From: Brevibacillus panacihumi W25
Lineage (GTDB): Bacteria; Bacillota; Bacilli; Brevibacillales; Brevibacillaceae
Reading direction: 5' to 3'
Assembly: GCF_000503775.1 (NCBI RefSeq)
Contig: NZ_KI629785.1
Location: 1,053,501 to 1,117,500, forward strand
Length of the DNA: 64,000 nucleotides
The notes below the pieces were generated by a model. The model had not been told where the DNA came from, did not search any database, and saw only the letters and a list, made by a program, of their open reading frames with translations. Numbering within the stretch: the stretch's first letter is position 1; each line of letters begins with the position of its first letter. Positions 345 to 57,968 of this stretch are shown piece after piece. The position numbers and the translations under genes were made by a program.

Positions 345-600
345 GGAAAAAGGAGAAAATGCTCCAGGCGGGTTGGGATCTTCATTGGGGCAGTACTGGC
401 CGGCTCCATTCCAAAAGGCGGAACCGCGGCCAAAAGCAGCCGACTTCGAAGAAGTGGTTCAGGGTTGGCCACTAAGGACGTGTTCCCCCTTTTTCCATTG
501 CGCCTGGGTCAAGATCCCAAATGCCTTCGCTTTTTTCTCCTTTTTCCTCGACCAGCTTATTCAAGTCCCCGTTCCTACAATTGTGGGTTTCTCTTGGAGC
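345..600 (+). repeat. Dispersed structured repeat, copy A (full length)
   Basis: Intergenic element closed by a perfect 15-bp inverted repeat: GGAAAAAGGAGAAAA (345-359) pairs with TTTTCTCCTTTTTCC (533-547). Inside, 417-454 is a 38-nt block identical to 40318-40355 in copy B, and AGTGG (453-457) can pair with CCACT (469-473). After the right arm, the sequence TCGACCAGCT and a TCTCTTGGAGC-like end are shared with copies B and C. The short reading frames across it encode low-complexity products and differ between copies, so it is not a gene. It lies between a secreted-protein gene and an integrase pseudogene. Family unknown to me; it resembles in kind the bcr1-type or MITE-like repeats of Bacillales. 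Confidence 0.85.
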
Positions 601-841
601 AAAGAAAAAACATCATAATACTAGACAACCCAATAAAACATGTAATTTCATGTACATCATTAACGTGTAGCTTGCAAATAAAAAGCAATAGCATCAGGAA
701 TTTACGATTAGTTACAGAGTACTTAATCTGGTACATAATTTTTCTCACATATTAACCTTTTTTAGTCGCTTTATGTCGGACTATTATGAATAGTTTGTTA
801 TAATATGTACAATACTAGTTAACTTTGATGAATGTATGAAG
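601..841. other. AT-rich spacer, no gene recognised
   Basis: Short frames here have no ribosome binding site and no recognisable motif. The composition turns clearly AT-rich from about 600, marking the left edge of the decayed accessory zone. Confidence 0.5.
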
Positions 842-856
842 GTAAGGGGGAATTTC

Positions 857-1942
857 ATGACGAATTCTGTTGTTCATTTTGGTGGATTTTCTCATAATCC
901 TGAAATCGATTCTTTCCGTTTTTTGTACAGACGTGGCCTTTCTACAAATAGATAATATCCGAGAATATCGTAAACATTCTGTAATCATGCTAAAGAACTC
1001 CATTACAAATCAATCAATCATACACCCTTTGACTGCATTTATCTTTTGGAAATGGAAACGGAAAGAATATAACACACAGCGGTTGCAAGCGATCCACCTT
1101 TGTCAGTTTTTAAACTACATTCTAATAGAGAAAAGAAACGTACTGCACTTCGTATAGCTCCACGAATTAGTCTCGGATTTATATGTCTATGTTTGGTGGA
1201 CTGCGTGCAGGAGAAGTTGCAAATATAAGAGTAATCGATATTACGCCCTATGGTGATTCACATGCCTCAGGGGGAATGAAAGTTTCTATAGTGACCCAGG
1301 ATTTAAGAAAAGACATTGGAGACAAGTCAGGCACGAGCCAAGTCAAACGGGAGAGAAAACAGTTCGTTTTTAACATCAAAGATGTGCTTCCTCTCCTTTA
1401 TAAAGAACATATGAAACGCTATTCATTATCCGATCGATCACAAAAATCCTCCATTTATGATCCCCTGTTTATAAATCGAGATGGGAAAGCGATGACCGGT
1501 AAGAGCATTCGCTATTACTCCAATAAGATCAAAGCCGAATTTATCAGGGAGCTTCTTGCTTCAGACAACCCCGACGATGTAATTACCGCCCTCAATCTGC
1601 AATCGACGAAATGGTCTTTCCACATCGGAAGAAGTATCTTTACAAATCTGACAGCAAAAACCGCCAAAAATCCATATGAAGTGGCACTCGCAAAAGGTGA
1701 CCTAAGCATTTATTCAGCCCTTACCTATATGTCAGATACACCTGAATGCCCTGTCCATTGCAGGCTCTACAGTCATTGTTAATTGCATCTCCAAGCAAAA
1801 AGTGGACTACTCTGCTATCACAAAAACTGTGAAAAGACTTCGAAAGATTGATTGGTCTACAAACGGAAACTTAATATTTGTTAAAGGGTTAAACAGTTCA
1901 AAAACACTCGCTTCTGACTTCGTTGCGCAAATGACATCTTAA
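857..1942 (+). pseudogene. Tyrosine recombinase / phage-type integrase, multiply frameshifted
   Basis: A good start (ATG 857, AAGGGGG about 7 nt upstream) begins a frame that stops after about 32 codons. Coding sense continues in a second frame (about 950-1137, with a core-binding-like stretch HPLTAFIFWKWKRKEYNTQR), a third frame (1183-1740) and a fourth segment (1742-1942, ending TAA). The third frame has the box I arginine (GGLRAGEVANI) and a degenerate box II His-x-x-Arg (SFHIGRSIFTN), followed by a region resembling the box that precedes the catalytic Tyr. At least three frameshifts separate the pieces, so no functional recombinase is expected. It could be a chromosomal integrase of a lost element or the partner of the Tn3 remnant just downstream. 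Confidence 0.75.
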
Positions 1943-1979
1943 TCATACACAGTAATTTAAGGTGTTTGTTTATGCTATC

Positions 1980-2352
1980 GATAAAAATTCTTTACACCTT
2001 GGGAAATAAACGTTGGTGTAGGGGAACATTTTTCAAGCCGATTAACATGTAGCCCACCTTCCTTACATTTAATACCATTAGCGCATCCATGTTGTCACCA
2101 ATCCACTGTAATCGACGAAGGTGAGTTGTAGTTCTCTTCTCAAGATAGTCTTCTACATTGAGACTAACCGCTAATCTGGTTCCTGTCGACTTAGTAGAAT
2201 TCCATTCGTTTTGTGATACCAGGTACTCGTCGAAGTCTTTATGCTGTCTACTTCCGACAATGGAAACATCTGCGGACCTACATAATTTCTTAGTTCCATA
2301 AGAGAATCCATTTCATAGTAATGCTGATAGTTCCATCCTCATCAAACACATG
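1980..2352 (-). pseudogene. Tn3-family transposase (TnpA) internal fragment, frameshifted
   Basis: The reverse strand carries three consecutive short frames that join into the conserved middle of Tn3-family TnpA. The first (about 2352-2285) reads YYEMDSLMELRNY. The second (2285 downwards) contains RSADVSIVGSRQHKDFDEYL, matching the family pattern R-S-G-D-x-x-V-x-G-S-R-x-Y-x-D-[FL]-x-x-Y-L. The third (ending near 1980) reads GGLHVNRLEKCSP, matching the GxLHVxxLE block. Both ends are missing and each junction is a frameshift. The fragment abuts the convergent integrase pseudogene. No terminal inverted repeats were identified. Confidence 0.72.
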
Positions 2353-2416
2353 TTTTTACCATCCGGACTCTAAAGAGGGTACCGCTGCCCCACGCTAAGA
2401 ACTTGGATACAATAAT

Positions 2417-2454
2417 AAAAGCTCGAGTTCATGTACGTTGAACTCGAGCTTTTT
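2417..2454. terminator. Bidirectional Rho-independent terminator
   Basis: A perfect 15-bp stem, AAAAGCTCGAGTTCA with TGAACTCGAGCTTTT, encloses a 7-nt loop. A T-run on one side and A-run on the other allow termination in both directions. It is the first strong terminator downstream of the lipase pseudogene on the minus strand. Confidence 0.8.
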
Positions 2455-2763
2455 ATAATGAGGATTGCTCCTATCCAGATCCGGAAATACTCGGGAGTGA
2501 TTATGGTTCAAATACCAATAACTGCGCCTCGTTTTCTTGGAGTTATTTGGAACGACGTACGGCTTTACATGGAGGCGCGGGCACGATAGGTTGGGTTGCC
2601 TTGCGATATATGGTCTTCCCCATAGCCCAATTGCAAGAATCCATGCCCATCAGAGCCTCCATGTCAAGCTCGGCAGAAGCAACATCATTTTTACGTCTGG
2701 AGCTTATATAGTTACGCGTGCCAGCCATTTGCAAGTAGTTTCAAGAAGGCAGAAAAGTGGTTT
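2455..2763. other. Spacer without a supported gene
   Basis: GC content rises here compared with the flanks and short frames exist on both strands, but none has a ribosome binding site or a family motif I recognise. It may be more gene debris; nothing further can be said. Confidence 0.4.
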
Positions 2764-4440
2764 TTAGTCTTTTGAATCATCATCGTAATCTCCAGTTAAG
2801 GCTCTTTCAACATAGTGAGGAACCCTTGGATGTAAACGCATACTACTATGTCCACCGAATTCATCATCCCAAATTAAGAATCTCCTATTCATCAACACTG
2901 GATCTTCATTATAAGAGTAATCCGGGTCGTAATCTGAGCCTAATGCAGAATCAATATTAACGTTTCCATCTCCAATATCAAAACGTGTCGGGTATTCACC
3001 CGTCTTGTCATAGTATTTTTCTTGTACATAGTCGTACCAACTACTATATAGTCTATTCGGCCCAACTCCTAGCCCTGTACCATAAATGTTTCGAATATCA
3101 CCAAAATCAGGATCAACAAGCTTACGGTACGAAGGATTCCACCCAGCAAATGCAATCATTGGCTTTGTGAAATCATTGTCTAAACTTCGAGAACCATTCC
3201 ATAACTCACTATTATCTCGACTAAGATCACCATCAGGTGCTTGATCACTTCCAAAATGAGGCGTTCCTAAAGTGATTACTCTCTCGACATCTGCTCTAGA
3301 TATATTTTCGACTAAATAACGAGATACTAGCCCCCCCATACTATGGCCAACTAAGTTGACATCTTGTGTTCTGCTACTAAAAACTTCATTTTTAAGATCT
3401 GTGATAACATCTTCTAAATGATTCGCTGCTACCCTAACAGTACCATCTACACCTGAAGCATTGTAAACAAATGCAAAAATATCTTCGTTAGGAGTGTAAC
3501 CATATTCTATAATTAGTTTAGATCCAAGTTCTTCGTCATTGACGATACCTGTTATCGAGTGAACATCAATGTTTGAATAAGTACTTTCAGTATGAGTTGG
3601 ATAGCTTGTCCCAGTTATAGTTTCATATCCTCGAATCGGTTCCCCAGCCCACGGTTCATCATAAAAATTATGAACCCATCTATCTTCGAATCCCCATGTG
3701 TCTGCTCCCCCAAAAAGTCCATGCACTAATATAACTGGTGTCTTTCCTGATTGCAAAGTAACAGCACTTGCACTTAATACCATTGTTTCATTTTCTTCAT
3801 ACATTTCATCAATCATATAAGTAGCTTCTAATACAACTTCGTCCTTTTCTTTAAGATTTTTGTCACTGAGTATTTCATTATCTAAACTATCTTCATCTTT
3901 AAACTTCACTATTTTTGAAATCTTAAATGTTCCATTTTCCGTAAAATCTTTACCGTCTAACTCTAACGGTAGGTTATTAATGCGTGCTTTACCGTTAAAC
4001 TTTTTGAATTTAGTTTTCTTTCCTTCAGTTGAGAGTCCGTTTTCTTGCACTTTATTGCTCGATAAAACTACAAAAGTTCCGCCACCTTCAAATGTTGCAC
4101 TAATGGTTTCACTTTTCTTGTTGAATTTTTGTTTTTTTACGGTCTCAAGTTGCACTTCTTTATGATTATATTTTAAAAGCAAAAAATCTTCTTTCTTAGA
4201 TTGGACTTCGACTGGGATTTCCAAATTAAATTCAATAGTTGGATCTAAGCTTACTATATCAAAAACAAGAGCATCTTCAATTTGCTGCATCAATAAGATA
4301 GGTGTATCTCTAACAATCACTTTTTGTGGCACATTAAAAGTACCAACCATTGTCCCCTCAATTTCAAACTCATTACGCGGGAATTTGTACTCATGCTCTT
4401 CCTCACCATCGGGAATATCATTATCATTTTCATCTGGTTT
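2764..4440 (-). pseudogene. Secreted alpha/beta-hydrolase lipase, C-terminal part (cut by IS3 insertion)
   Basis: This is the downstream half of a gene interrupted by the element at 4441-5978. It carries a lipase domain with the oxyanion-type HGLFGG motif (about 3720) and the nucleophile elbow GHSMGG (Ser codon near 3342). A late acidic-His region (GGHSSMRLHPR) probably supplies the catalytic His. The first possible ATG (4350) lacks a good ribosome binding site, and sense continues upstream of it (KPDENDNDIPDGEEEHEY) to the insertion point. Removing the element and one copy of the 5-bp duplication joins this frame to the half at 5979-6411. Without its signal peptide this half would not be secreted. 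Family (triacylglycerol lipase/esterase) is clear; substrate is not. Confidence 0.85.
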
Positions 4441-4521
4441 CTCTTAAGCCCCAAAATTGGATTTGAGTCTACCCCCCTTATCTTGTTAAGCTGGTATCAG
4501 AAGAACAGAGGGGGATTTTTT

Positions 4522-4854
4522 ATGCAACGAAAACGCTATCCAATCGAGTTTAAACAACAGCTGGTTCAAGAAGCCCAAGATGCAGGAAATGCAAGCCAAG
4601 TTGCCAGACGGCATGGGATCGATGTGAAAATGTTGTATCGTTGGATACGTGATTCGAAACATGCGGATTGGAAAAACGCTCCTGCCGAAGCCAAAGCGGT
4701 AACGAGTTATACTCCGAGCCCGGGAGAATTTCGTGAATTGGAAACCGAGAATGATCAACTGAAGAAACTACTTGGAGAAAAGGATTTGGAAATCGCGATC
4801 CTCCGTGATCTTGTAAAAAAGGTGAACCCAGCTTATCGGACAAAGTGGAAATAG
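4522..4854 (+). CDS. IS3-family transposase OrfA (helix-turn-helix)
   Basis: 110 residues starting at ATG 4522 behind AGAGGGGG. Residues about 5-45 (YPIEFKQQLVQEAQDAG, then VARRHGID and YRWI) form the IS3-type helix-turn-helix that binds the element's ends. Residues about 75-100 form a leucine-zipper-like coiled coil (LETENDQLKKLLGEKDLEIA). An A-AAA-AAG slippery heptamer near the 3' end allows a -1 shift into orfB. Intact. Confidence 0.9.
   Translation: MQRKRYPIEFKQQLVQEAQDAGNASQVARRHGIDVKMLYRWIRDSKHADWKNAPAEAKAVTSYTPSPGEFRELETENDQLKKLLGEKDLEIAILRDLVKKVNPAYRTKWK
4814..4820 (+). promoter_or_regulatory. Programmed -1 frameshift site (A6G)
   Basis: AAAAAAG in the orfA phase A-AAA-AAG is the classical slippery heptamer of IS3 elements. 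From it the -1 frame is open straight into orfB without a stop, so an OrfAB fusion transposase can be made. No downstream pseudoknot was modelled. Confidence 0.75.
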
Positions 4855-5774
4855 CCGACAAGTGGATACAGCTGGGGTATACAGCCAAATTGGTGCTACG
4901 TATTGTCGGCATCCTTGAAGCAACCTACTACTATCGGAAAAATAAGGCCTCTCAAAAGCCACGGGTTTACCATGGAGGGCGGCCGATCCCTGGTTATTCA
5001 TTGTCAACGGACGGACAACCTGTCAGTGACGAGCAAATTAAAGAATGGATATCGGAACTGATTGCGGATGAAGAATCTGCTTATGGCTATCGAAAGCTTA
5101 CGGTCTGCCTGCGGCGAGATCACCAGTTGATCATCAACAAGAAAAAAGTGTACCGCCTGCTGAAAGAAGAAGGACTTTTACAACCACAACGAAAAAAGAA
5201 TAGTCATCATCCCCGGAGGCTTGCCAATAACCGAGAGATCACCGCTCCGAATCAATTGTGGGAGATGGACGTAAAATACGGATTTATCGCCGGGGAACAT
5301 CGTTTCTTTTTCCTGATGAGTCTCATTGACGTCTATGATCGAGCGATCGTAGACTATCATTTTGGTTTGTCATGCGAAGGAAAACATGCATCTCAGATTC
5401 TTCAAAGAGCTTTGTGGAAACGGCAACAATTCGACAACGAGAATCCCCCTGTTATCCGTACGGATAACGGTCCGCAGTTTATTAGTCATGTATTCGAGGA
5501 GGCCTGTCAAAGCTTCCGAACCGTTCACGAACGAATTCCTCCAAAGACGCCAAACAAAAACGCTCACATTGAGTCCTTTCACAGCGTTTTGGAGAAAGAA
5601 TGTTTGCAGCGGAATGAATTTCAGAGCTATCAAGAAGCCTATGAAACCGTGACAAACTATCTGCTCTTTTACAATCAGCGCCGGATTCACGGAAGCTTGT
5701 ACGATTTATCACCTGTAGAATTTGGTAAAGCTTTTACCCTGCAACGCATTACACCATTTGTTGTGAAAGTGTAG
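4845..5774 (+). CDS. IS3-family transposase OrfB (DDE integrase core)
   Basis: 309 residues from GTG 4845, overlapping the orfA end by 10 nt in the -1 frame. An N-terminal HTH_21-like region (YGYRKLTVCL about residue 80) is followed by a complete rve/DDE core: first Asp in WEMDVKY, second Asp in RTDNGPQF, and the catalytic Glu in HIESFHSVLEKE. All three acidic residues are present and no stop interrupts the frame. It probably acts as the C-terminal part of an OrfAB fusion that catalyses strand transfer. The IS subgroup was not determined. Confidence 0.93.
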   Translation: MEIADKWIQLGYTAKLVLRIVGILEATYYYRKNKASQKPRVYHGGRPIPGYSLSTDGQPVSDEQIKEWISELIADEESAYGYRKLTVCLRRDHQLIINKKKVYRLLKEEGLLQPQRKKNSHHPRRLANNREITAPNQLWEMDVKYGFIAGEHRFFFLMSLIDVYDRAIVDYHFGLSCEGKHASQILQRALWKRQQFDNENPPVIRTDNGPQFISHVFEEACQSFRTVHERIPPKTPNKNAHIESFHSVLEKECLQRNEFQSYQEAYETVTNYLLFYNQRRIHGSLYDLSPVEFGKAFTLQRITPFVVKV

Positions 5775-5798
5775 TGTGGCAAAGGATTGCAGAACGAT

Positions 5799-5911
5799 CC
5801 CTACTTCAACCTAGCTGACAAGCAGAAAGGAAACCGTCTGGGGTCAAGTGATCTCCTTGACGCTAGACGGTTTCCTTTCTAGACTCCGACTCCAAGGTGG
5901 TTGAAGTAGGG
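5799..5911. repeat. Three-tier palindrome at the 3' end of the IS
   Basis: Nested inverted repeats share one axis: CCCTACTTCAACC (5799-5811) with GGTTGAAGTAGGG (5899-5911); AGAAAGGAAACCGTCT (5824-5839) with AGACGGTTTCCTTTCT (5865-5880); and GTCAAG (5843-5848) with CTTGAC (5856-5861). All stems are perfect. It follows orfB by about 25 bp and may act as an IS terminator that blocks read-through, or be a small nested hairpin element. Confidence 0.85.
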
Positions 5912-5978
5912 AAGAAGGAAGAATCATATGAAAATGCGAGAATAAGGGAGAAAGACTCTAATTTTGAGGGGTTAAACC

Positions 5979-6411
5979 GGTTTTAATGGATCAAATTTTA
6001 AATACTTAATTTCAATACCATCCTTTAACCCATCACCATCAGTGTCGGCAACATCTGGCTTTGTACCATATTCATCAATTTCTTCTTTGTGTCTAATCCA
6101 TCGCCATCGCTATCGATTTTATCCATTCTTGTCCCTAATTCTTGTTCTTCGAGATTTGTTAATCCGTCACCATCGTAATCTTCATCGCCATCTAAAACTC
6201 CGTTTTTGTCGGAATCTGAATCTTTTGTGTTTGTATTAAATAGCTCATAAAAATCTTTTAGACCATCTCCATCTGTGTCCAAGTCGAAATTTTCGGTAAT
6301 ATTCTTTTTAGACTTTGCACCTACTTGTTGCGGATTGAACGCAGCTTCAACAAACAATGAGGTTACTAATAGTGTTGAAACAAAAAATAATGAAACTTTC
6401 TTTCGGCGCAT
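5979..6411 (-). pseudogene. Secreted lipase, N-terminal part (signal peptide and Ca-binding repeats)
   Basis: The start is ATG 6411, with AAGGGAGAG about 8 nt upstream. Residues 1-32 are a signal peptide (MRRKK, then a hydrophobic run ending before SKKN). Next come thrombospondin type 3-like calcium-binding repeats (DTDGDGLKD, DSDKNGVLDGDEDYDGDG, DSDGDG). A single-base loss near 6094-6096 shifts the frame; in the next frame sense resumes (HKEEIDEYGTKPDVADTDG) and runs to the IS junction. The gene is therefore doubly broken: one frameshift and one IS insertion. It is the upstream half of the hydrolase at 2764-4440. Confidence 0.85.
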
Positions 6412-7389: not shown

Positions 7390-7429
7390 AAAAGCCTCCC
7401 TTATTTCCGTTCACTCTTATTTTTGTTGG

Positions 7430-8006: not shown

Positions 8007-8040
8007 TCACTTTATTAAGTTCATTATTCTTTGCTACTAT

Positions 8041-8988: not shown

Positions 8989-9183
8989 ATCGTTAACTCC
9001 TTTATCGGCTGTAATACCTATGCGTATTCGTTCCTATTGTACGCTTCTTTGGCAGGCTGCTCAACTGTCAAACACGTTTCTCCCAGCGCTTGGACATACC
9101 CGGAAGCGTTAACGCGTACACTAAAGGAAGCAAACGGGAATCCGCATAACCAAGTAAGTGAATAGGAATTAGCGTTTTTATCA

Positions 9184-26692: not shown

Positions 26693-28147
26693 ATGGAGAA
26701 AGATGCAGAAATTTTCGCCATGTTTCAAACCAGCCGTTTCATCGACATTTTTAATGCCTTAGCCGACGGGATCTACATCTCGGATGCGCAGGGAACCACC
26801 ATCTGGCTTAACAATGCCAGTGAAAACCTGTGCGGCTTGCCCAAATCACAGCTCATCGGACAAAATGTGGCCGACCTGGAAGCGCTTGGGATCTTTAATC
26901 CGTCCGTCACGAGACTTGTCATGGAAAGCGGAAAAACCACCACGACGATCCAACTCGTCAACAATAAAGGCAAATTCCTCGTCACAGGCCACATCATACC
27001 GGACGAGTCAGGAAACCCGGACCTGATCGTCTCCCACTCTCGCGACATTACAGAGGCAGCACGGGCCAGTTCGCAATTGGAGGAGACCAGCGCGCTTCTG
27101 AAGCGATACAGCGAGGAAATCCAACTCATGAAACGGGAAGCAAACCAGAACCTTTCCCGGACGGTAATTGGCAACAGTCGGGCCTATCTTGCCTTGCTTG
27201 ACCTGATCAAAAAGGCAGCAGTCGCAGACACTACCGCCCTGATTACCGGAGAGACAGGGGTGGGCAAAAGCTATCTCGCCGAACAAATTCACCAGCTTAG
27301 CGAACGCTGTGCCGCTCCATTCATCCACGTCAATTGTAGTGCCATCCCCGAAACCCTGCTGGAGTCTGAACTGTTTGGCTACCAAAAAGGCGCATTTACC
27401 GGAGCCAATCATTCAGGCAAGCTGGGGCTTGTCAAAATGGCGGACAAAGGCACCCTGTTTCTCGATGAAATCAGCGATCTTCCCTACCACCTTCAGTCTA
27501 AATTGCTATTGCTTTTGCAAAATAAAACCTTCATGCCGATTGGCGGAACCAAAACGTACACCGCCGATATACGGATCATTGCCGCCACCAACGCCAATTT
27601 GCTGGATCTGGTACGTCAAGGGAAATTCCGACATGATCTTTACTATCGTCTCAATATTCTGCCAATCAATGTTCCGGCACTCCGTGAGCGAAAGGAAGAT
27701 ATTTTCCCGCTGCTTCACCACAACTTGAAGAAATTTAATGCCAAGCATAATCAGAAGCGGCGTTTCTCTGCTGAAGTCCTAGACCGCTTGCATCACTACG
27801 AGTGGCCCGGGAACGTGCGTGAGTTGGAGAATCTTGTAGAGCGGATCGTCATCACCTCGAAGCTGGACGAGATCTTGATTACCGACTTGCCGGAGGAATT
27901 GCGCAATATGGGGGAAAATGAAGATCATCTGCTCACAATCGGCGGTCATCTTTCGTTGAATGAGAGGCTGGAAAAGATCGAGCTGGAGATCATCACACAT
28001 GCACTGAAACAGCATAAAACCACCCGCAAGACGGCCGCTGCATTGGGCATTACCCAATCTCTACTCATGCGGCGCATCAAGAAATACGGGATCGCGGTTG
28101 ATCATTCTGGAGATGGGAGCTTTGACGACCCTCTCTTCAAGCTGTAG
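26693..28147 (+). CDS. PAS-domain sigma-54-dependent activator
   Basis: 484 residues from ATG 26693 (TTGGAGGC upstream). Domains in order: PAS sensor (about 15-125, ALADGIYISDAQGTTIWLNN), coiled linker, AAA+ sigma-54 interaction domain (Walker A GETGVGKS from residue 186, GAFTGA at 233-238, Walker B GTLFLDEI), and a C-terminal Fis-type HTH (TRKTAAALGITQSLLMRRIKKY). It should contact sigma-54 polymerase at the divergent CoA-transferase promoter. The PAS domain probably binds a small metabolite. Similar BkdR/RocR/AcoR-type activators control catabolic operons in Bacillus. Confidence 0.93.
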   Translation: MEKDAEIFAMFQTSRFIDIFNALADGIYISDAQGTTIWLNNASENLCGLPKSQLIGQNVADLEALGIFNPSVTRLVMESGKTTTTIQLVNNKGKFLVTGHIIPDESGNPDLIVSHSRDITEAARASSQLEETSALLKRYSEEIQLMKREANQNLSRTVIGNSRAYLALLDLIKKAAVADTTALITGETGVGKSYLAEQIHQLSERCAAPFIHVNCSAIPETLLESELFGYQKGAFTGANHSGKLGLVKMADKGTLFLDEISDLPYHLQSKLLLLLQNKTFMPIGGTKTYTADIRIIAATNANLLDLVRQGKFRHDLYYRLNILPINVPALRERKEDIFPLLHHNLKKFNAKHNQKRRFSAEVLDRLHHYEWPGNVRELENLVERIVITSKLDEILITDLPEELRNMGENEDHLLTIGGHLSLNERLEKIELEIITHALKQHKTTRKTAAALGITQSLLMRRIKKYGIAVDHSGDGSFDDPLFKL

Positions 28148-28163
28148 TGGAGGCGAGGAAAAA

Positions 28164-28201
28164 GAGATGAACCGCCCCTATCGCCGAGGCGGATTCATCT
28201 C
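28164..28201. terminator. Terminator between convergent genes
   Basis: GAGATGAACCGCC and GGCGGATTCATCTC form a long stem with one mismatch. Flanking A and T runs are modest; it separates the activator gene from the convergent MerR gene. Confidence 0.65.
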
Positions 28202-28210
28202 CCTTCCCTC

Positions 28211-28975
28211 CTATTTTCCAATTCCTGTATATACCCCAATGGCATCTCGCAAAAATTCCGCTGCTCCTGGCTGCACAGCGTCGTAATACGCATTGAAGCG
28301 TTCATCCTCCACGTACATCTGCGCCAATCCGGCATGTGCTTCCTTGCTGTATTCATTCCAGGTGAAGCTCAGCCATTGCCGGTGCAGGTCTGCTGCCTTC
28401 TGTGCTTCTTCGCTAGCAGGATCTCCTTTTTGGAGGGCAGCACCCAGCGCGGCGAGGACCTCGTTTTCCAAGCGCTTCATCTCGTCATATTGCTCGGCTG
28501 TCATTCCCATAAGCTTTTGATTGGATCGGTCCACGACGTCATCTCCGTACTTTTCCCGTATTTCTTTTCCGTACTTCTGCTCATTTTCTTCCACTAATTT
28601 TTGCGTAAACCCGGCAAATTTCTCTTGATCCGTCATCATCGTTCTCCCCTCTTTCTGAGCGATTGTCTTCTCCACGGTGGCAATCAAGGCATCCAACTGC
28701 TTCCTTCTGTCCAGAAGCTGTTGGTAATGCTCCTTAAGCGCCTTGTTCTCGTCGAAGGTTGGCGAGTTGATCAGCTCCTTGATCTGATTCAGCGGCAGAC
28801 CGAGCTCGCGGTAAAACATGATTTGCTGCAATTTATCAACCTCTGCCTGGCCGTAGATCCGATAGCCGGAGGAGTTGATTCTCGCTGGCTCCAGGATCCC
28901 GATCTGGTCGTAATAACGCAGCGTGCGCGTACTGATTCCCGCCAGCCGTCCCAGCTTCTGCACGGTGTATTCCAC
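28211..28975 (-). CDS. MerR family regulator with TipAS-like ligand domain (Mta type)
   Basis: 254 residues from GTG 28975, which has GGGAGG at proper distance; GTG 28984 is too close to it. The MerR winged helix is textbook (VQKLGRLAGISTRTLRYYDQ, then SSGYRIYGQAEVDKL). A long dimerisation helix follows, then a C-terminal TipAS-like antibiotic-binding domain (YDEMKRLENEVLAAL, FTWNEYSKEAHAGLAQMYV, FNAYYD). Length is close to B. subtilis Mta (about 257). A palindrome inside its own promoter spacer suggests autoactivation on drug binding. Confidence 0.88.
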   Translation of the reverse strand: MEYTVQKLGRLAGISTRTLRYYDQIGILEPARINSSGYRIYGQAEVDKLQQIMFYRELGLPLNQIKELINSPTFDENKALKEHYQQLLDRRKQLDALIATVEKTIAQKEGRTMMTDQEKFAGFTQKLVEENEQKYGKEIREKYGDDVVDRSNQKLMGMTAEQYDEMKRLENEVLAALGAALQKGDPASEEAQKAADLHRQWLSFTWNEYSKEAHAGLAQMYVEDERFNAYYDAVQPGAAEFLRDAIGVYTGIGK

Positions 28976-40043: not shown

Positions 40044-40246
40044 ACGGTTTCCCTCCTTTGGGAACATTATACTGGAAAATGAAATAAATAAATGAATTCT
40101 TGGTTAATACGAAAATTTATTATGTATTTTTCCTATTTACTTTAAATTGTATTGCTCCATCTTTTTCAGCAGTAACGTTCTTTTTATTTTTTAACTCGAA
40201 GGAGGGAGCATGAGGCATGGCCTTTGACCAACTGTAGCGGCTGGGC

Positions 40247-40500
40247 GGAAAAAGGGGAAAACGCTCCAGGTTAGTTGGATCTTCGCTGTGGGTATCACTG
40301 GCCGGCTACACTCCAAAGGCGGAACCGCGGCCAAAAGCAGCCGACTTCGAAGAAGCGGTTCAGGGTTGGCCGCTGAATGCGTGTTCCGCCTTTTCCGTTT
40401 CGCCTGGGTCAAGATTCCAAATACCTTCGCTGGTTTTCCCCTTTTTCCTCGACCAGCTTGGCCTGGTCCTCCCACATTTTGTAGGCTTCTCATGGGGCAT
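40247..40500 (+). repeat. Dispersed structured repeat, copy B (full length)
   Basis: The terminal arms GGAAAAAGGGGAAAAC (40247-40262) and GTTTTCCCCTTTTTCC (40433-40448) pair perfectly over 16 bp. The 202-nt interior aligns with copy A throughout. Relative to A, the terminal stem has a G-C pair where A has A-T, and the internal hairpin AGCGG (40354-40358)/CCGCT (40370-40374) has C-G where A has T-A. GAACCGC and GCGGTTC offer an alternative 7-bp stem. Downstream GACCAG-N6-CTGGTC forms a second hairpin. Intergenic, between the Lrp gene and the LVIVD gene terminator; the flanking spacer 40044-40246 shows only AT-rich sequence. Confidence 0.87.
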
Positions 40501-40560
40501 TTTGAACTTCGAACATTTTCGAAAGGTTTTCCCACAACTTATAAAATCCAATCTGGTATG

Positions 40561-51907: not shown

Positions 51908-51992
51908 CAGCAGCCCCCCATGACTTTCTGTACTATTCTCTCTATGAATATAGTACCAGAAAACGAAAATGGAAGGCTATACCATTCTGCAA

Positions 51993-52466
51993 TTAGGCGG
52001 TCTCAAATATCATGGCGATCTCGTCGCACATAGGTAATTTGGAGCAATTGATGCAATCCTTCCATACCTTTTGCGGCAGAGATTCCTTGGCTACAATCCA
52101 AAAACCGCATTTCTCAAAAAACTCCTTTTGATACGTTAAAGCCAGCACGCGGTTGATGCCCAAAACGCGGCATTGCTCTACCAGATGCAAAACAAGATGT
52201 TTTCCTACACCCATGCCTTTGGCTCTTTCCGCAATCGCCAACGAACGTATTTCCGCCAGGTCTTCCCACAAGATATGAAGGCCCGCTACACCGACGACCG
52301 TCTCCCCATCATGGGCTACGATAAACGATTGCAGGTGCTCGCACACCGACAGCTTGGTGCGCGGAAGCATCAACCCTTGCCGTGCATATTCATTAACAAT
52401 CTCCAGCATTGCATCTACGTCTTTCATTGTTGCCTGACGTACGGTCAGCGCCTTGGTGACACTCAT
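51993..52466 (-). CDS. argA: Short-form N-acetylglutamate synthase (GNAT)
   Basis: 157 residues from ATG 52466 with GGAGTG upstream. GNAT fold close to the ArgA acetyltransferase domain: RQGLMLPRTKLSVCEHLQSF, DLAEIRSLAIAERAKGMGVG (acetyl-CoA loop), LALTYQKEFFEKCGF, LPQKVWKDC and the Cys-x-x-C-like end (CSKLPMCDEIAM). It probably acetylates glutamate at the start of arginine synthesis. A good ARG-box-like site 42-59 bp upstream supports this. Other GNAT substrates cannot be excluded. Confidence 0.8.
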   Translation of the reverse strand: MSVTKALTVRQATMKDVDAMLEIVNEYARQGLMLPRTKLSVCEHLQSFIVAHDGETVVGVAGLHILWEDLAEIRSLAIAERAKGMGVGKHLVLHLVEQCRVLGINRVLALTYQKEFFEKCGFWIVAKESLPQKVWKDCINCSKLPMCDEIAMIFETA

Positions 52467-52507
52467 CTTACACTCCTCCACTCCACGCTCAGGAAGCCTG
52501 GTACAAT

Positions 52508-52525
52508 ATCATAATTATTCATTAT
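52508..52525 (-). promoter_or_regulatory. ARG box (ArgR/AhrC site) upstream of the N-acetylglutamate synthase gene
   Basis: The minus strand reads AATGAATAATTATGATAT, matching the ARG-box pattern WNTGAATWWWWATTCANW in its left half and AT centre. An AT-rich second copy-like stretch lies next to it. It would give arginine-dependent repression. Confidence 0.55.
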
Positions 52526-52588
52526 AGTATATAAATATACATTCGCAATGGTCAGAAGTCTATCCCTTTTTTCATTGTCTTGTCCCCG

Positions 52589-52616
52589 TTCATTCAAATG
52601 AATTCTTTCGAAAGAA
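52589..52616. promoter_or_regulatory. Two adjacent palindromes, likely TetR operator
   Basis: TTCATTCAAATGAA (arms TTCATT/AATGAA) is directly followed by the perfect palindrome TTCTTTCGAAAGAA, just before a TATAAT -10. They lie between the divergent acetyltransferase and tetR genes. Confidence 0.5.
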
Positions 52617-52704
52617 CAAATTATGGTATAATGTCGGATAAGACATCGGTCAGGAAGTAGGTCCAACAGCATAAACGATGAAGCCAAACGGAGGTGTACG
52701 CGAT

Positions 52705-53298
52705 TTGACGACACGAAGAGAACGTAAAAAACGGGAGACGCGGGAAAAAATCTTCAATTCTGCCATCAAACTGTTCAAGGAGCACGGCTTCGAAGGAACA
52801 ACCATCGATATGATCTCCGAGGAAGCCGATGTGGCGCGCGGAACGATTTTTCTCCATTTCACCTCCAAAGAAGCGATTCTCGCCAACTGGGGATACGAAA
52901 GGCTTCATGAAATTGAGGAACGTCGGGATGAGTGGGATATCGATGATGATTGCAAAGCGAAGGTCTTGCGCATCTACAAGATTATGAACGAAGTCACCAT
53001 CAACAATTTCGACTTCATTAAAGTTGTCGTGGAGTCTTCGATGAAACACCGCAAAGTGCTGGAATCGGAGAAAAACATGTATTTTGAACTGCGCCAGCTT
53101 TTTGCGGATCTGATCGAAGATGCCCAGGAGAAAAAACAGCTGAAATCCAAGTTCAATCCTCTGGTCGCCGCCAACATGCTCGAAAACATCTACTACAACG
53201 CGCTGTACGACTGGGTTCGCAGCGAAGGAGCATGGGCGTTGGAAGAAATCATGGAAGAAAAGGTCTCTATCGTATTTGAAGGGCTGCACACAGATTAA
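52705..53298 (+). CDS. TetR family transcriptional regulator
   Basis: About 197 residues. Start placed at TTG 52705, 9 nt after GGAGGT; ATG 52678 would add nine residues without a good site. HTH: TREKIFNSAIKLFKEHGFEG and ISEEADVARGTIFLHFTSKE. The effector domain is long and acidic and unassigned. Two palindromes overlap its promoter, suggesting autoregulation. The next gene has its own promoter, so the target is unclear. Confidence 0.82.
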   Translation: MTTRRERKKRETREKIFNSAIKLFKEHGFEGTTIDMISEEADVARGTIFLHFTSKEAILANWGYERLHEIEERRDEWDIDDDCKAKVLRIYKIMNEVTINNFDFIKVVVESSMKHRKVLESEKNMYFELRQLFADLIEDAQEKKQLKSKFNPLVAANMLENIYYNALYDWVRSEGAWALEEIMEEKVSIVFEGLHTD

Positions 53299-53394
53299 AT
53301 CTTGTGATCAGCCCTTCGCGTTTTCTGCGCATCCTTGCTCCCTCTCTTTCCCCCTGCTCGCAGCACTTTCAACATCTACCAGCCTCGTTTTTGC

Positions 53395-53423
53395 TTGCGG
53401 TCACTATCACAATTCCCTATGAT
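53395..53423 (+). promoter_or_regulatory. Sigma-A promoter of the U32 peptidase gene
   Basis: TTGCGG and TATGAT separated by exactly 17 bp, ending about 43 bp before the start codon. Confidence 0.6.
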
Positions 53424-53465
53424 GAAGTTAGCTTGTTTGAAGACCTTGGAGGTAATGACATTCAG

Positions 53466-55958
53466 ATGCGAAATGGAATCAAGCGTGAAGATATTGAATT
53501 GCTGGCTCCCGCAGGCAACTGGGATTGTCTGAAGGCTGCTGTAGCCAACGGAGCCAATGCCGTATTTTTTGGAGTCGAAAAGTTCAACGCCCGTGCCCGG
53601 GCCGAAAACTTTCAAATGGCAGAACTGCCAGAGATTATGTCCTACCTGCACATGTACGGGGTAAAAGGCTTTTTAACCTTTAATATTCTGGTATTTGAAA
53701 ACGAATTGCAGGACGCCCAGGAGCTGATCGACGCCTGTATCAACGCGGGTGTGGATGCTGTCATCGTCCAGGACCTCGGTTTGGTCAAGCTGATCCGTGA
53801 GATGTCGCCTGACTTCCCGATCCACGGCTCTACCCAGATGACCATCACCTCGCCGGAGGCAGTCGAGTTCACCAAGCCGTTCGATATCGAGCGAGTGGTG
53901 CTCGGACGGGAAAATTCACTCAAAGAGATCCGCAAAATCGGAGAGAAAGCCAAGCTGCCGATGGAAGTATTCGTCCACGGCGCTTTGTGCGTCTCCTACT
54001 CCGGCCAATGCCTGACTTCGGAAATGTGGGGTGGCCGCTCCGCCAACCGGGGGGAATGCGCACAAGCCTGCCGCTTGCCGTACGATCTGATGGTGGACGG
54101 CGTGCAAAAAGAGATGGGCAATATCGCGTACCTGCTGTCTCCCAAGGATTTGGCTGCGATCGAGCTGGTGCCCGAGCTGATCGAAGCAGGTGTCACCTCG
54201 TTTAAAATTGAGGGAAGACTCAAAACCCCGGAATATGTCGCCAACGTGGTCAGCAAATACCGCGCTGCCATCGACCGCTATTTCGACGGTATCGACACGC
54301 CGCCGAATGAACAGGAAATCCGCGAGCTGCAACAGAGCTTTTCGCGCGGCTTTACGCATGGCTTCCTGGAAGGAACAAACAATAAAAAGCTCGTAGACGG
54401 AAGCTTTCCAAAGAGCCGAGGCGTCTATCTTGGGGAAGTCAAGAAAAAGCTGTCCCACGGCTTGCTCGTCGAAATTGCCTCCCCTGTCAAACGCGGGGAC
54501 GGAATTGTCTTCGACGCTGGTGATCCGACTCAGAAGGAAGAAGGCGGGCGCATCTACGACATCCTCTCGCGCAGCAAAAAGGTAGAGGGTGAAGTTTCAA
54601 AGGGGCTGTACGAGATCGTCATGGGCCGCAACGATGTAAACCTGAAGCGCATCAACGTCGGCGACCGCGTCTGGAAAACCAGCGATCCCGAGCTGGACAA
54701 GCGACTGCGCAAGACCTTCGAGACCGAAAAGCCGTATCATACGTTCCCAATCGCAGTACATGCCAGCGGAAAGCTGGGTGAAAAGCTGAAGCTGACTTGG
54801 GTGGACCTGCAAGCGCAGCATGCTGTTACCAACCAGTCCCAAATTCCGCTGGAGCAAGCCTTGAAGCGTCCGCTGACACATGAACTGCTGCACGATCAGC
54901 TGGGACGTCTGGGCGGTACACTGTTCCATCTGAATCAGGAGGATTTGACAATCGAGTTGGACGGGGAACTGATCCTTCCAGTAAGCGAGCTGAACCGGTT
55001 GCGCAGGGAAGCTGCGGAGCAGTTGCTCTATCTGCGTTCCAAGCCGCCTGTCTATCAAAAGCGTCCCGTGAATGCGTTCGCAGACATTCCTCGGAAAAAA
55101 CAGGTGGAAAAGCCCTTGCTCACTGCTCTGTGCCGTTCCCTTGAGCAATTGGAAGCAGCTGCACAGACAGATGTGGACTTTCTCTACGCAGATTTTGAAT
55201 TCGTGAAGCAATATCCAGATGCTGTCAAGCTGGCGCATCGCTACAACAAAAAGATCGGCATCGCGACGATGCGCATCCACATGCCGGATGAGAACGGCGT
55301 GCTGGCCTTGATCGCGAAAGCCAAGCCAGATGCCATCCTCGTGCGCAACACCGGAGCCTTGTACTACTACATGTCCAGACGCGGCGAAATCAACATCCCG
55401 CTGATCGGCGACTTTTCGCTCAACATCGCCAACCACAAAGCGGTCGAGCTGTTCCTGGACTGCGGCCTTGAGCGGGTAACGCCGTCCTATGACCTGAACA
55501 TCCAGCAGATGGTGGATTTGCTGGAAAACGCGGACGCTGCCCAGATGGAATTGGTCATTCATCAGCACATGCCGATGTTCCATACCGAGCACTGTGTCTA
55601 CTGCACCTTCCTCAGCGAAGGGACCGATCATACCAACTGCGGTACGCCTTGCGAGACCTCCCGCGTCTCCCTCAAGGACCGCGTCGGCTTCTCCCATCCG
55701 GTCCGTGTCGATACCGGATGCCGCAACACCGTATACAACGCAATCGACCAGTCTGGGGCAGAATACCTGAATGAATTCCGCTCCCTGCAGGTAGGTTCCT
55801 ACCGGATCGAGTTCCTGGAGGAGGAGCCTGAGCGCGTCCAAGAAGTCATCTCCCTGTATCGCCAGGCGCTGCGCGGAGAAGTAAGCGGAACCCATGTCTG
55901 GCGCACCCTCAAAGCGACCAATCAACTGGGGGTCACCCGCGGACAACTTACCAAATAA
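53466..55958 (+). CDS. U32 family peptidase with DUF3656-type extension (RlhA-like)
   Basis: 830 residues from ATG 53466 (TTGGAGG upstream). The U32 core is clear: ELLAPAGNWDCLKAAVANGA at the start, IHGSTQMTITSPEAVEF, EVFVHGALCVSYSGQC, NRGECAQACRLPYDL, and KIEGRLKTPEYVANV, with the conserved Cys cluster. A long middle and C-terminal region follows, with a second Cys set (HCVYCTFLSEGTDHTNCGTP, GCRNTVYN). Long U32 proteins such as E. coli RlhA are needed for hydroxylation of a cytidine in 23S rRNA, so an rRNA or tRNA modification role is more likely than proteolysis. UPF0435 follows after 25 bp. Confidence 0.88.
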   Translation: MRNGIKREDIELLAPAGNWDCLKAAVANGANAVFFGVEKFNARARAENFQMAELPEIMSYLHMYGVKGFLTFNILVFENELQDAQELIDACINAGVDAVIVQDLGLVKLIREMSPDFPIHGSTQMTITSPEAVEFTKPFDIERVVLGRENSLKEIRKIGEKAKLPMEVFVHGALCVSYSGQCLTSEMWGGRSANRGECAQACRLPYDLMVDGVQKEMGNIAYLLSPKDLAAIELVPELIEAGVTSFKIEGRLKTPEYVANVVSKYRAAIDRYFDGIDTPPNEQEIRELQQSFSRGFTHGFLEGTNNKKLVDGSFPKSRGVYLGEVKKKLSHGLLVEIASPVKRGDGIVFDAGDPTQKEEGGRIYDILSRSKKVEGEVSKGLYEIVMGRNDVNLKRINVGDRVWKTSDPELDKRLRKTFETEKPYHTFPIAVHASGKLGEKLKLTWVDLQAQHAVTNQSQIPLEQALKRPLTHELLHDQLGRLGGTLFHLNQEDLTIELDGELILPVSELNRLRREAAEQLLYLRSKPPVYQKRPVNAFADIPRKKQVEKPLLTALCRSLEQLEAAAQTDVDFLYADFEFVKQYPDAVKLAHRYNKKIGIATMRIHMPDENGVLALIAKAKPDAILVRNTGALYYYMSRRGEINIPLIGDFSLNIANHKAVELFLDCGLERVTPSYDLNIQQMVDLLENADAAQMELVIHQHMPMFHTEHCVYCTFLSEGTDHTNCGTPCETSRVSLKDRVGFSHPVRVDTGCRNTVYNAIDQSGAEYLNEFRSLQVGSYRIEFLEEEPERVQEVISLYRQALRGEVSGTHVWRTLKATNQLGVTRGQLTK

Positions 55959-55983
55959 AAGCGAGACGAGAGGAGATGTTTCC

Positions 55984-56217
55984 ATGGCTGACCTGAACCA
56001 ACCATCGGTAGAAAACCTGTCTATCCTGATCGAGGGCATCAAAGCCAAGCTGAATATGGCGAATACCGCTGTGATGCGCCCGGAGGACTTCGATCTGGAG
56101 CACTACGAGGATCTGTTGTACCTCTACAACATGGTGCAGAAGAAAAGCACATTCGGCATCAATGAAATGACTGCTATCGTCGAAGAACTGGGCCAAATGC
56201 GCAAGCAAGGATCCTAA
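55984..56217 (+). CDS. UPF0435 (DUF1128) protein
   Basis: 77 residues from ATG 55984 (AGAGGAGATG upstream). Matches the UPF0435/YfkK family of Bacillales: SVENLSILIEGIKAKLNMAN, then MRPEDFDLEHYEDL and FGINEMTAIVEELGQMR. All-helical, function unknown. Probably co-transcribed with the U32 gene and ended by the terminator at 56233. Confidence 0.88.
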   Translation: MADLNQPSVENLSILIEGIKAKLNMANTAVMRPEDFDLEHYEDLLYLYNMVQKKSTFGINEMTAIVEELGQMRKQGS

Positions 56218-56232
56218 TACGAGTATAAAAAG

Positions 56233-56273
56233 AAGAGTATGGGCAAAGAACATCTTTGCCCATACTCTTTTTT
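56233..56273. terminator. Strong bidirectional terminator
   Basis: AAGAGTATGGGCAAAG pairs with CTTTGCCCATACTCTT (16 bp, 5-nt loop) and is followed by TTTTTT. It separates UPF0435 from the convergent efflux gene. Confidence 0.9.
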
Positions 56274-57748
56274 CATGTTTGCTGCTGGGCAACCTTCCCT
56301 CTCGCTCTGGCTCTCTGTCTTTCCGGACCGGGTGAATCATGAAGAAAGAAGGCGAGAATCAATGCGGCAGCGGCGAAGCAGGTGGCGACCAAAAACGCGT
56401 CATTGGTGCCCATCGTCATTCCCTGCAGGGTCGCTTGCCCCATCTGGACCTGGTCTGCGGGATTGATCTGGCGCTCGCTGACGATCCGGGAGATATACGT
56501 CTCGCTTCGGATCGTCATGATCGAGACGAACAGGGCCGTTCCGATCGCCCCTCCTATCGCATTGAGGGTATTGGACATCGCTGTGCCATGCGGATTCAGC
56601 CGCAACGGCAAGGAATTAAGCCCCGCCGTCATCACCGGCATCATCAGCATCGACAGTCCGAAGCTGCGGAAGGTGTAGATCGTCGCCAAATACCAAAAAG
56701 TCGTGCCCAGACTCAGTCTGGTCAATCCAAAAGTCGTCACGATGGTAATCGACAAGCCGATAATCGCCAGCCATCTCGCTCCATACTTGTCAAACAGCCT
56801 GCCGTTGATGATGCCCATCAGAATGCTTCCTGGCAATAACAACAATCCAGACTGTACAGGCGACAAGCCCAAGATGTTTTGTACGAAGACAGGCAGCAGG
56901 ATCAAGCCAGAGAACAAGGTCATATTCAGTAACAGGCTTATTAAGACGGCAATCGTATAGGTCGGCGTGCGAAAAATGCGAAACTCCAGCATGGCGTGTT
57001 CAATGGACAATTGCCTGCGGACGAAAATCACCAGACTGATGATCCCGATCAGAACGGGGACAATCACATGGTAGCTCCCCCAGCCATATCCACCTGCAGA
57101 GCTGAAGCCGTAGAGGATCCCGCCAAAACCGATCGTGGAAAAGATGACGCCCCATGGATCAAATTTCGGATTCTCGGTTTCCGTTACATTTTTCAAGAGA
57201 AAGGCAGCTGCGATGAGAACGATCAAAGCGATCGGCAAAATGATAAAAAACAGGACGCGCCAGGGGTAATGTTCGACCACCCAGCCTGACAGGGTCGGAC
57301 CGATTGCAGGTGCAAAGACCATGGCGACTCCGACAAACCCCATTGCCGACCCCCTCTGTTCTTTGGGGTACATGTTAAAAATGACATTGGTCATTAAAGG
57401 CATCATAATTCCCGCACCGGCCGCTTGAATCATCCGCCCTCCCAGCATGGAGAGAAAATTGGGAGAAACGCCGCACAGCAATGTCCCGATCGAGAACAAG
57501 GTCATCGCAGTCAAGAACAGCTGTCGCGTCGTAAATCTCTCCATTAAAAATGCGGTCGTCGGGATCAATACCCCGTTCACCAGCATGTAGATCGTGATGA
57601 CCCACTGTGCCGTCGAAGTACTGATCTGAAAATCTTGCATCAAATGGGGTATCGCTACGTTCAGCAAGGTTTGATTGAAAAATGCTACGATGGCTCCTGC
57701 AATCACAACACCTAGTATGAGTCCCCGGTTATAGCCCGCTTGCGTCAT
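56273..57748 (-). CDS. DHA2 family drug efflux transporter (EmrB/LmrB-like)
   Basis: 491 residues from ATG 57748 (AAGGAAAGGAAGG upstream); a 75-codon upstream extension would run through the repeat and is not used. Fourteen helices; FNQTLLNVAIPHLMQDF near residue 27, motif B-like GGRMIQAAGAGIMMPLM and motif C GPTLSGWVVEHYPWR. It exports lipophilic drugs with protons. Repeat copy C lies directly in front of it. The C-terminus is basic (ERQRARARGKVAQQQT) and reaches the terminator. Confidence 0.88.
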   Translation of the reverse strand: MTQAGYNRGLILGVVIAGAIVAFFNQTLLNVAIPHLMQDFQISTSTAQWVITIYMLVNGVLIPTTAFLMERFTTRQLFLTAMTLFSIGTLLCGVSPNFLSMLGGRMIQAAGAGIMMPLMTNVIFNMYPKEQRGSAMGFVGVAMVFAPAIGPTLSGWVVEHYPWRVLFFIILPIALIVLIAAAFLLKNVTETENPKFDPWGVIFSTIGFGGILYGFSSAGGYGWGSYHVIVPVLIGIISLVIFVRRQLSIEHAMLEFRIFRTPTYTIAVLISLLLNMTLFSGLILLPVFVQNILGLSPVQSGLLLLPGSILMGIINGRLFDKYGARWLAIIGLSITIVTTFGLTRLSLGTTFWYLATIYTFRSFGLSMLMMPVMTAGLNSLPLRLNPHGTAMSNTLNAIGGAIGTALFVSIMTIRSETYISRIVSERQINPADQVQMGQATLQGMTMGTNDAFLVATCFAAAALILAFFLHDSPGPERQRARARGKVAQQQT

Positions 57749-57869
57749 GCCATTCCTTCCTTTCCTTGTGTCATGACTGCTATTCCCACGGAAGTAGTAT
57801 GTGAAGGTGTTGCATTTTCCATTCTCTGACAAGATTAAGTTTGCGTTGGACAGGCTTTCGTGCAGGGGA

Positions 57870-57968
57870 GGAAAAAGGAGAAACGCTTCAGGCGGGTTGA
57901 ACGCTTTTTCCCCTTTTTCCTCGACCAGCTGTGTCTGGTCCTCCATCATTCTGGAATCTCTTGGAGTA
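57870..57968 (+). repeat. Dispersed structured repeat, copy C (internally deleted)
   Basis: Only the terminal arms remain: GGAAAAAGGAGAAAC (57870-57884) and TTTTTCCCCTTTTTCC (57905-57920), separated by 20 nt where copies A and B have about 170 nt. The 3' flank is kept: TCGACCAGCT, the hairpin GACCAG-N6-CTGGTC, and TCTCTTGGAGTATT. The stem now has one A-C mismatch, combining an A-type left arm with a B-type right arm. It lies between cimA and the efflux gene. Confidence 0.85.

What the first reader, a model, noticed from the sequence alone, without database searches (positions are those of the whole stretch)
345..57968. Undescribed dispersed repeat with covarying terminal and internal stems (three copies)
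Seen: copies at 345-600, 40247-40500 and 57870-57968, all intergenic. A and B are 203 and 202 nt between outer arms and share an identical 38-nt block (417-454, 40318-40355). The terminal stem is 15-16 bp in each. Where A has an A-T pair in that stem, B has G-C; in the internal 5-bp hairpin A has T-A (AGTGG/CCACT) and B has C-G (AGCGG/CCGCT). Two compensatory changes argue that folding is selected, as RNA or as DNA cruciform. C keeps only the terminal stem and the 3' GACCAG-N6-CTGGTC hairpin, like an internally deleted, still recognised element. Inference: a MITE-like or bcr1-like repeat family, possibly transcribed.
Basis: partly seen in the sequence, partly recalled or inferred. Interest (0 to 1): 0.8.

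Follow-up and report, generated by a model that had tools for sequence, protein, structure and literature searches.

The report
Replication-oriented long-hairpin DNA repeat family
The three repeats belong to a large, old family of roughly 230-base hairpin-forming DNA elements scattered between genes in Brevibacillus and its relatives; most point the same way as DNA replication, and their folding is conserved, which suggests they move or act as folded single-stranded DNA.

Summary
Copies A, B and the centre-deleted C belong to a dispersed family: in this Brevibacillus-type genome at least 49 near-full-length copies, 11 split by a group II intron and 7 partial ones. A covariance model finds relatives in 36 of 39 genomes of the GTDB family and 59 of 398 sampled Bacilli genomes. 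Stems are conserved as stems: 50 of 51 pairs change on both sides across subfamilies, and paired columns diverge less than unpaired ones between orthologous copies (2.9% against 6.3%). G·U pairs are rare (1.8% of pairs against 8.9% in eight tRNAs), which points to DNA rather than RNA folding. S is then the lagging-strand template. Elements often lie just downstream of transcription terminators. Sister species share sites; distant species mostly do not. Best reading: a non-autonomous MITE/REPIN-like element handled as an ssDNA hairpin; enzyme unknown. No literature could be opened.

The parts
321..557 (-). Copy A, full element read on the S (minus) strand; outer stem arms 345-359 and 533-547
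   Evidence: R2 match 203.4 bits; arms read
558..600 (-). 5' flank of S copy A with the weakly conserved CCAAGAGAAACCCACAA block
   Evidence: flank listing
40223..40458 (-). Copy B, full element on S strand; outer stem arms 40247-40262 and 40433-40448
   Evidence: R2 match 208.1 bits; orthologous copy in G016 at the same site
40459..40503 (-). 5' flank of S copy B with the block CCCATGAGAAGCCTACAAAA
   Evidence: shared with G016
57846..57930 (-). Copy C, centre-deleted element keeping the outer stem and both ends
   Evidence: R2 match 51.9 bits; fold -32.2 kcal/mol
57931..57968 (-). 5' flank of S copy C with the rest of the GACCAG..CTGGTC hairpin
28133..28219 (-). Truncated remnant keeping the 3' end TTTTTCCTCGCCTCCACTACAGC; the G016 record ends inside an intron-bearing copy at this site
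   Evidence: R2 match 28.9 bits; L067 alignment
9003..9152 (.). Unoccupied counterpart of a site where G007 and G022 carry a composite element of about 496 bp
   Evidence: about 70% flank identity, so the junction cannot be read to the base

Best explanation
A non-autonomous dispersed DNA element of about 230 nt (about 290 with conserved flanks), MITE/REPIN-BIME-like, that works as a single-stranded DNA hairpin. SHOWN by the sequences: the S strand can fold into a long, nearly pure Watson-Crick rod with some conserved unpaired bases; in the main subfamily S runs with the replication fork, i.e. has the sequence of the lagging-strand template; elements often sit just downstream of intrinsic terminators; copies amplified largely by lineage and were then inherited at fixed sites. 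INFERRED: S becomes single-stranded on the lagging-strand template, folds, and is recognised by a trans-acting enzyme or host factor, which gives both past spread and one-way orientation. NOT SHOWN: the enzyme, the exact ends, target duplication, any current transposition. Slower change of stems between orthologous copies suggests that the fold still does something at many sites.
For: Copy number and distribution. Structure: 50 of 51 pairs with double changes, 89.8% of cells paired against 38-48% when slid (the alignment was fitted to the structure). DNA-like pairing: 49 G000 copies give WC 2357, GU 42, AC 13, other 60, so GU is 1.8% of standard pairs against 8.9% in 8 tRNAs. S is the better strand (GU 42 > AC 13). 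Orientation: 63 of 67 copies fork-codirectional in G000 (skew); 99 of 99 listed places in five genomes with dnaA near base 1 and 24 of 24 listed places in G002, whose skew changes sign near 1.8 and 4.9 Mb and explains what looked like exceptions; 40 of 40 loci, mostly the same places. Where flanking genes converge and so impose no direction: 13 of 13 and 9 of 9. Terminator within 170 nt 5' of S in 27 of 59 copies, on the 3' side in 4 of 59. Lineage amplification: G000+G016 copies one clade 100/99, G004 copies one clade 100/97. Site sharing: 35 of 38 G016 loci share flank with a G000 copy, against 0 of 10, 0 of 6, 0 of 4, 3 of 20 and 3 of 17 for five other species. Constraint: paired 52/1810, unpaired inside 121/1915, outside the stem 81/661.
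Against: No transposase was tied to the dispersed copies: Y1 matches in G000 are only broken or split pieces (4 matches; G004, G007 and G021 do have full-length ones), and 1 of 20 Y1 loci has an element nearby. No target duplication or precise empty site could be read. Shared sites with G016 mean no visible movement since that split. Orientation is not absolute: 4 of 67 exceptions in G000; two of them lie between genes that run against the fork (one of those genes is an inserted IS110 transposase). G008 14 of 17. Read by hand with dnaA: G010 5 of 6 and G001 3 of 4 (one search list), G021 15 of 24 and G034 8 of 11 (one search list, weaker subfamilies). In A4 as a whole AC (50) equals GU (48), though in pairs at least 75% WC it is 12 against 28. 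One-sided changes dominate between orthologues (44 against 5), so copies are also decaying. In the tree G008 and G010 do not form single clades (2 and 3 changes).
Confidence: 0.52

Rival explanations
1. Host cis-element rather than a parasite: a chromosomal hairpin kept on the lagging-strand template for a cell function such as primer or primosome loading, SMC/condensin or gyrase binding (as reported for E. coli BIMEs, recalled), or relief of transcription-replication conflict.
For: Fork orientation even between convergent genes; stems more conserved than loops and flanks between orthologues; wide distribution in the family; frequent placement after terminators.
Against: No matches in plasmid or phage records for one alpha and one beta copy (close relatives may be left out).
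Confidence: 0.22
2. A classical terminal-inverted-repeat MITE moved by a DDE transposase, perhaps of the IS1182 kind.
For: Composite units carry short terminal inverted repeats of the type GCTGTAGTGG/CCACTACAGC; one IS1182-family element, in G000 twice and in G121 and G038, carries an S-type hairpin next to its transposase.
Against: That IS ends in GAGAGCCCTGCAAAA repeats with 6-bp target duplications (CCTAAG, CTATTT; read by eye), about 90 bp outside the hairpin; these ends were not noticed next to the dispersed copies in the flank listings (read by eye, partly cut). Fork-locked orientation is not expected of double-strand cut-and-paste (inference).
Confidence: 0.13
3. A structured non-coding RNA gene or RNA regulatory element present in many copies.
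For: Strong covariation; S-strand fold better than its complement; 4 of 59 copies have a terminator-like site after S.
Against: G·U pairs rare; often placed after the upstream terminator; no conserved promoter was noticed in the 5' flanks by eye, but no promoter scan was run; no Rfam family.
Confidence: 0.1
4. Neutral relics whose arms stay complementary through template switching, without selection for folding.
For: Intra-palindrome correction is a known way to make double changes (recalled); decaying copies exist.
Against: Unpaired bases such as the junction CGgnCAGt are kept across subfamilies whose stems differ wholly; paired columns diverge less than unpaired ones.
Confidence: 0.03

Closest known systems
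REPIN / BIME (REP doublets with RAYT transposases; features recalled)
   Same: Dispersed intergenic palindromes at the 3' side of genes, two unlike units in inverted pairs (RC-beta plus alpha) and tandem arrays in related genomes, imperfect hairpins with conserved unpaired bases
   Different: About 230-nt rods instead of short palindromes; no intact Y1 transposase found in the host genome; strong fork orientation
bcr1 repeats of the Bacillus cereus group (recalled)
   Same: Intergenic, structured, many copies in a Bacillota genome
   Different: Sequences not compared here; no target duplication seen here; other host group and size
ERIC-type imperfect palindromes and other MITEs (recalled)
   Same: Non-autonomous, near-palindromic over the whole length, copy number differing by lineage
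   Different: Orientation tied to replication; unpaired bases conserved across wholly changed stems
IS200/IS605 elements, integron attC sites (ssDNA-hairpin substrates, recalled)
   Same: Folded single strand as the proposed substrate; lagging-strand bias; stems free to change in sequence
   Different: No Y1 transposase linkage seen; integron integrase and attC boxes were not searched for

Membership tests
REPIN/BIME | Inverted pairs of palindromic units, dispersed and in arrays | tested here: met
   496-bp RC-beta+alpha composites in 9 genomes, tandem places of period about 521; in the 0.86 Mb of G000 scanned with R2 only one such pair was seen
REPIN/BIME | RAYT (Y1) transposase in the genome, flanked by the repeats | tested here: not met
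   G000: 4 matches, all broken or split pieces; G026 one fragment; G004, G007 and G021 have full-length ones; 1 of 20 Y1 loci has an element nearby
MITE | Dispersed, short, non-coding, amplified by lineage | tested here: met
   non-coding judged by eye from frame-shifting indels
MITE | Terminal inverted repeats and target site duplication | tested here: inconclusive
   Short TIR in composites; no target duplication readable; the one empty site is too diverged
Rfam structured RNA | Match to a described family | tested here: not met
   0 gathering hits in the window; group II intron parts and sub-threshold matches in ten other loci
Selected RNA structure | G·U pairs common among variant pairs | tested here: not met
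   GU 42 of 2399 standard pairs; control 8 tRNAs, minimum-energy folds, 17 of 190
bcr1 | bcr1 sequence and target duplication | not tested
   No bcr1 sequence compared; paper calls failed
Integron attC | Integrase gene and R/L boxes | not tested
   No search made
IS1182 element ends | Element ends equal the IS inverted repeats | tested here: not met
   IS ends GAGAGCCCTGC lie about 90 bp outside the hairpin

The most novel reading that the evidence does not exclude
A previously undescribed class of chromosomal elements, found in seven genera of one family and in some genomes of seven further families of Bacilli, that are displayed as roughly 230-nt ssDNA hairpins on the lagging-strand template, recognised through unpaired bases (apical ccAnCnntga, junction CGgnCAGt, 3' CCACtACAGC in the main types) while the stem sequence is free to change, and either transposed at the fork by an unknown enzyme or used as lagging-strand landmarks.
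Probability: 0.35. Interest if true: 0.85.

Novelty: new variant of a known kind. Interest (0 to 1): 0.66.

Why it matters
If right, this is a Gram-positive counterpart of REPIN/BIME elements with far longer hairpins and, in the main subfamily, a fork orientation strict enough to serve as a natural strand marker. It would make testable how folded ssDNA on the lagging-strand template is recognised in Bacilli. The same repeats also serve as landing pads for a site-specific group II intron and an IS110-family element, a natural system for retrohoming and RNA-guided insertion.

Tried and rejected
Rejected: (1) the pairs of weak hits about 2 kb apart as ends of a transposon: they are one repeat split by a group II intron. 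(2) Joint spread of repeat plus intron: the repeat halves beside the introns differ among copies while the introns are nearly identical. (3) A coding reading: core lengths of 203-209 nt and single-base indels shift the frames (judged by eye). (4) Y1/RAYT parentage. (5) IS1182 parentage through shared ends. (7) Plasmid or phage origin: no DNA matches for two query copies. A first gene caller failed and was replaced; only the second is used, and it is a simple codon score. Dead ends: no empty site found between G000 and G016; the one empty site found is too diverged for a junction. The whole-class search scored five candidates per genome; of the 26 genomes outside the own family only one locus (L370) was fetched, so the rest were not inspected. 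All literature calls failed, so no statement is made that the family is absent from print.
Full report
WHAT WAS CHECKED. The window lies in contig C4 (1053501-1117500, + strand) of a 5.55-Mb genome, G000. The closest relative met, G016, has three contig lengths equal to those of Brevibacillus panacihumi JCM 15085, the only organism listed by an exact 25-base core search (the window's own genome may be left out there).

BLAST with copy B gave 63 matches, 40 of them long, with 40 of 97 candidates scored. A covariance model (R1, from 30 copies) found 49 near-full-length copies with at least 160 bits on their own strand, plus split and partial ones (150 of 2372 candidates scored, so counts are lower bounds). 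Because the element is nearly palindromic, matches on the opposite strand at the same place are ghosts and were not counted.

ANATOMY. From 5' to 3' S reads: a short 5' segment ending in AGCTG; the outer stem (GAGGAAAAAGGGG.. / ..CCCCTTTTTCCTC in this genome); a stacked series of stems; an apical loop; then on the 3' side an asymmetric junction with CGgnCAGt; and the 3' end CCACtACAGC. Copies from other species keep this plan while stem sequences change wholly. Over 38 rows (37 distinct) from other genomes, 50 of 51 pairs have double changes, 89.8% of cells pair, and the covariation score is 0.746 against 0.08-0.12 when partners are slid. The alignment was fitted to the structure, and a few of its rows are weak or partial, so the figures lean; the slid controls show how far.

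DNA OR RNA. In 49 G000 copies the structure's pairs are WC 2357, GU 42, AC 13, other 60: G·U is 1.8% of standard pairs. Eight tRNAs from the same genome, folded by minimum energy, give 17 of 190 or 8.9% (a small control). The excess of GU over AC says that S, not its complement, is the folded strand; the rarity of both says that pairing is kept nearly Watson-Crick, which fits DNA better than RNA. In the wider set A4 the totals are GU 48 and AC 50; restricted to pairs with at least 75% WC they are 28 and 12. Cells are not independent.

ORIENTATION. GC skew was sampled in 40 stretches plus the window: it is negative over C1, C4 and C5 below dnaA (C5 about 429 kb) and positive beyond and on C6, except for the first 20 kb of C4 (positive) and of C6 (near zero). 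S runs with the fork in 63 of 67 copies (49 full, 11 intron-split, 7 partial). Genes also tend to run with the fork, so flanking genes were called by a codon score. Between genes of one direction, S runs with them in 46 and against in 1. Between convergent genes, which impose no direction, S runs with the fork in 13 of 13; between divergent genes in 3 of 4; three copies lack a neighbour. Of the four exceptions to the fork rule, two sit between genes that run against the fork and follow those genes, one of these being an IS110 transposase gene. In five genomes with dnaA near base 1, 99 of 99 places listed obey the rule, taking the terminus as half the length. In G002 two listed places looked wrong under that assumption; its own skew, sampled at 20 points, changes sign near 1.8 and 4.9 Mb, and 24 of 24 listed places agree with the nearest skew point. 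In G008, 14 of 17 agree. At 40 loci of G007, G005 and G022, mostly the same places as, it holds 40 of 40, with 26 same-direction, 9 convergent, 2 divergent and 1 both-opposed contexts and 2 without one neighbour. Counted by hand with dnaA: G010 5 of 6 and G001 3 of 4 (one search list), G021 15 of 24 and G034 8 of 11 (one search list). Lists are capped; orthologues and tandem units are not independent. A strand codirectional with the fork has the sequence of the lagging-strand template (textbook).

POSITION. An intrinsic-terminator-like hairpin with a T-run lies within 170 nt 5' of S in 27 of 59 copies, in S direction (10 of 59 in the reverse direction), against 4 of 59 and 1 of 59 on the 3' side and 4 of 150 random windows (random windows are mostly coding, so the 3' side is the better control; eight copies left out, seven partial and one without flank). 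S starts 28-209 nt after the stop codon of a codirectional upstream gene in 48 of the 59 copies that have one.

HISTORY. Of 39 G016 copies with the exact 25-mer, 38 have at least one flank matching the G000 DNA held here, 20 of them both flanks in one stretch; 35 of 38 loci match a G000 copy flank by 250 bp or more. For loci of G004, G008, G010, G007 and G005 this is 0 of 10, 0 of 6, 0 of 4, 3 of 20 and 3 of 17. A tree of 84 copies puts 51 G000 and G016 copies in one clade (100/99) with orthologues mostly as sisters, and 11 G004 copies in one clade (100/97); G008 (18 copies) and G010 (4) need 2 and 3 changes. So amplification was largely by lineage, followed by inheritance at fixed sites. In the window itself, 9003-9152 is the unoccupied counterpart of a site that carries a composite in G007 and G022. 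There are also losses: 28133-28219 is a stump of a copy that G016 keeps, there with the intron, and L204 is centre-deleted where G016 keeps the middle and an intron.

CONSTRAINT. In 21 G000/G016 pairs, with the search 25-mer masked, paired columns differ at 52 of 1810 (2.9%), unpaired columns inside the element at 121 of 1915 (6.3%) and columns outside the outer stem at 81 of 661 (12.3%); Fisher p 5e-7 for the first two. In 12 pairs with both flanks the core is 96.7% identical, the near flanks 92.4% and 90.1%, stretches farther out 93.6-96.5% (unmasked). Among paired positions that changed, 44 changed on one side (18 GU, 7 AC, 19 other) and 5 on both, so constraint is real but not perfect.

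DISTRIBUTION. With a cross-species model (R2) 36 of 39 genomes of the GTDB family have matches at E 0.001, all 7 genera; the three without are in one genus, two other members of which do match. A broader model (R3) finds matches at E 1e-4 in 59 of 398 Bacilli genomes, 33 of them in the own family and 26 in seven other families; five candidates per genome were scored. One outside hit, L370, is part of an IS1182-family element that also occurs twice in G000 and in G038 and carries a beta-type hairpin beside its transposase. Thus some of the spread may be hitch-hiking. In nine Brevibacillus genomes a composite of about 496 bp, two unlike hairpins in inverted order, makes up nearly all of the 31-44 BLAST matches per genome (33 candidates scored each), often in tandem (the list shown is capped).

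PASSENGERS. Seven G000 copies carry an IS110-family end at one point of the outer stem, six with the 1305-bp gene, in the same direction as S.

READING. The dispersed, lineage-wise, inherited pattern is that of a non-autonomous mobile element; the fork orientation, Watson-Crick pairing and conserved unpaired bases point to a folded single strand on the lagging-strand template as the form that is recognised. The first part is well supported; the second is inference. The main rival, a host function at the fork, is not excluded and may be true together with it. Names such as REPIN, BIME, bcr1, ERIC and attC are used from recall; no paper could be opened.

Noticed in passing
window 28133-28219: Truncated fourth copy keeping the 3' end; the G016 counterpart is longer and bears the intron.
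   Followed up: yes
   Followed up: partly
L194:902-2206 minus and six more copies: IS110-family element inserted at one point of the repeat's outer stem in 7 copies, 6 with the full-length gene in the same direction as S.
   Followed up: partly
L163:11130-13122, L180:17761-19754: IS1182-family element with 15-bp ends and 6-bp target duplications (read by eye), carrying a beta-type hairpin between its end and its transposase; near relatives in G121 (another family) and G038.
   Followed up: partly
L227-L232 (G008), L323 and L334 (G007): Head-to-tail tandem arrays of the element (period about 352 or 303 in G008, about 521 in the composite clade).
   Followed up: no
L072, L073, L074: Three IMG/VR 'viral' contigs each carry one element (R2 201.7, 110.1 and 110.1 bits).
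   Followed up: no
G000 C1, C4, C5, C6: Nine equal-scoring DnaA/IstB-like ATPase matches, probably copies of one insertion sequence.
   Followed up: no
L136:2261-3384: A two-ORF transposase unit (HTH_Tnp_1 plus rve) sits inside one intron copy.
   Followed up: no
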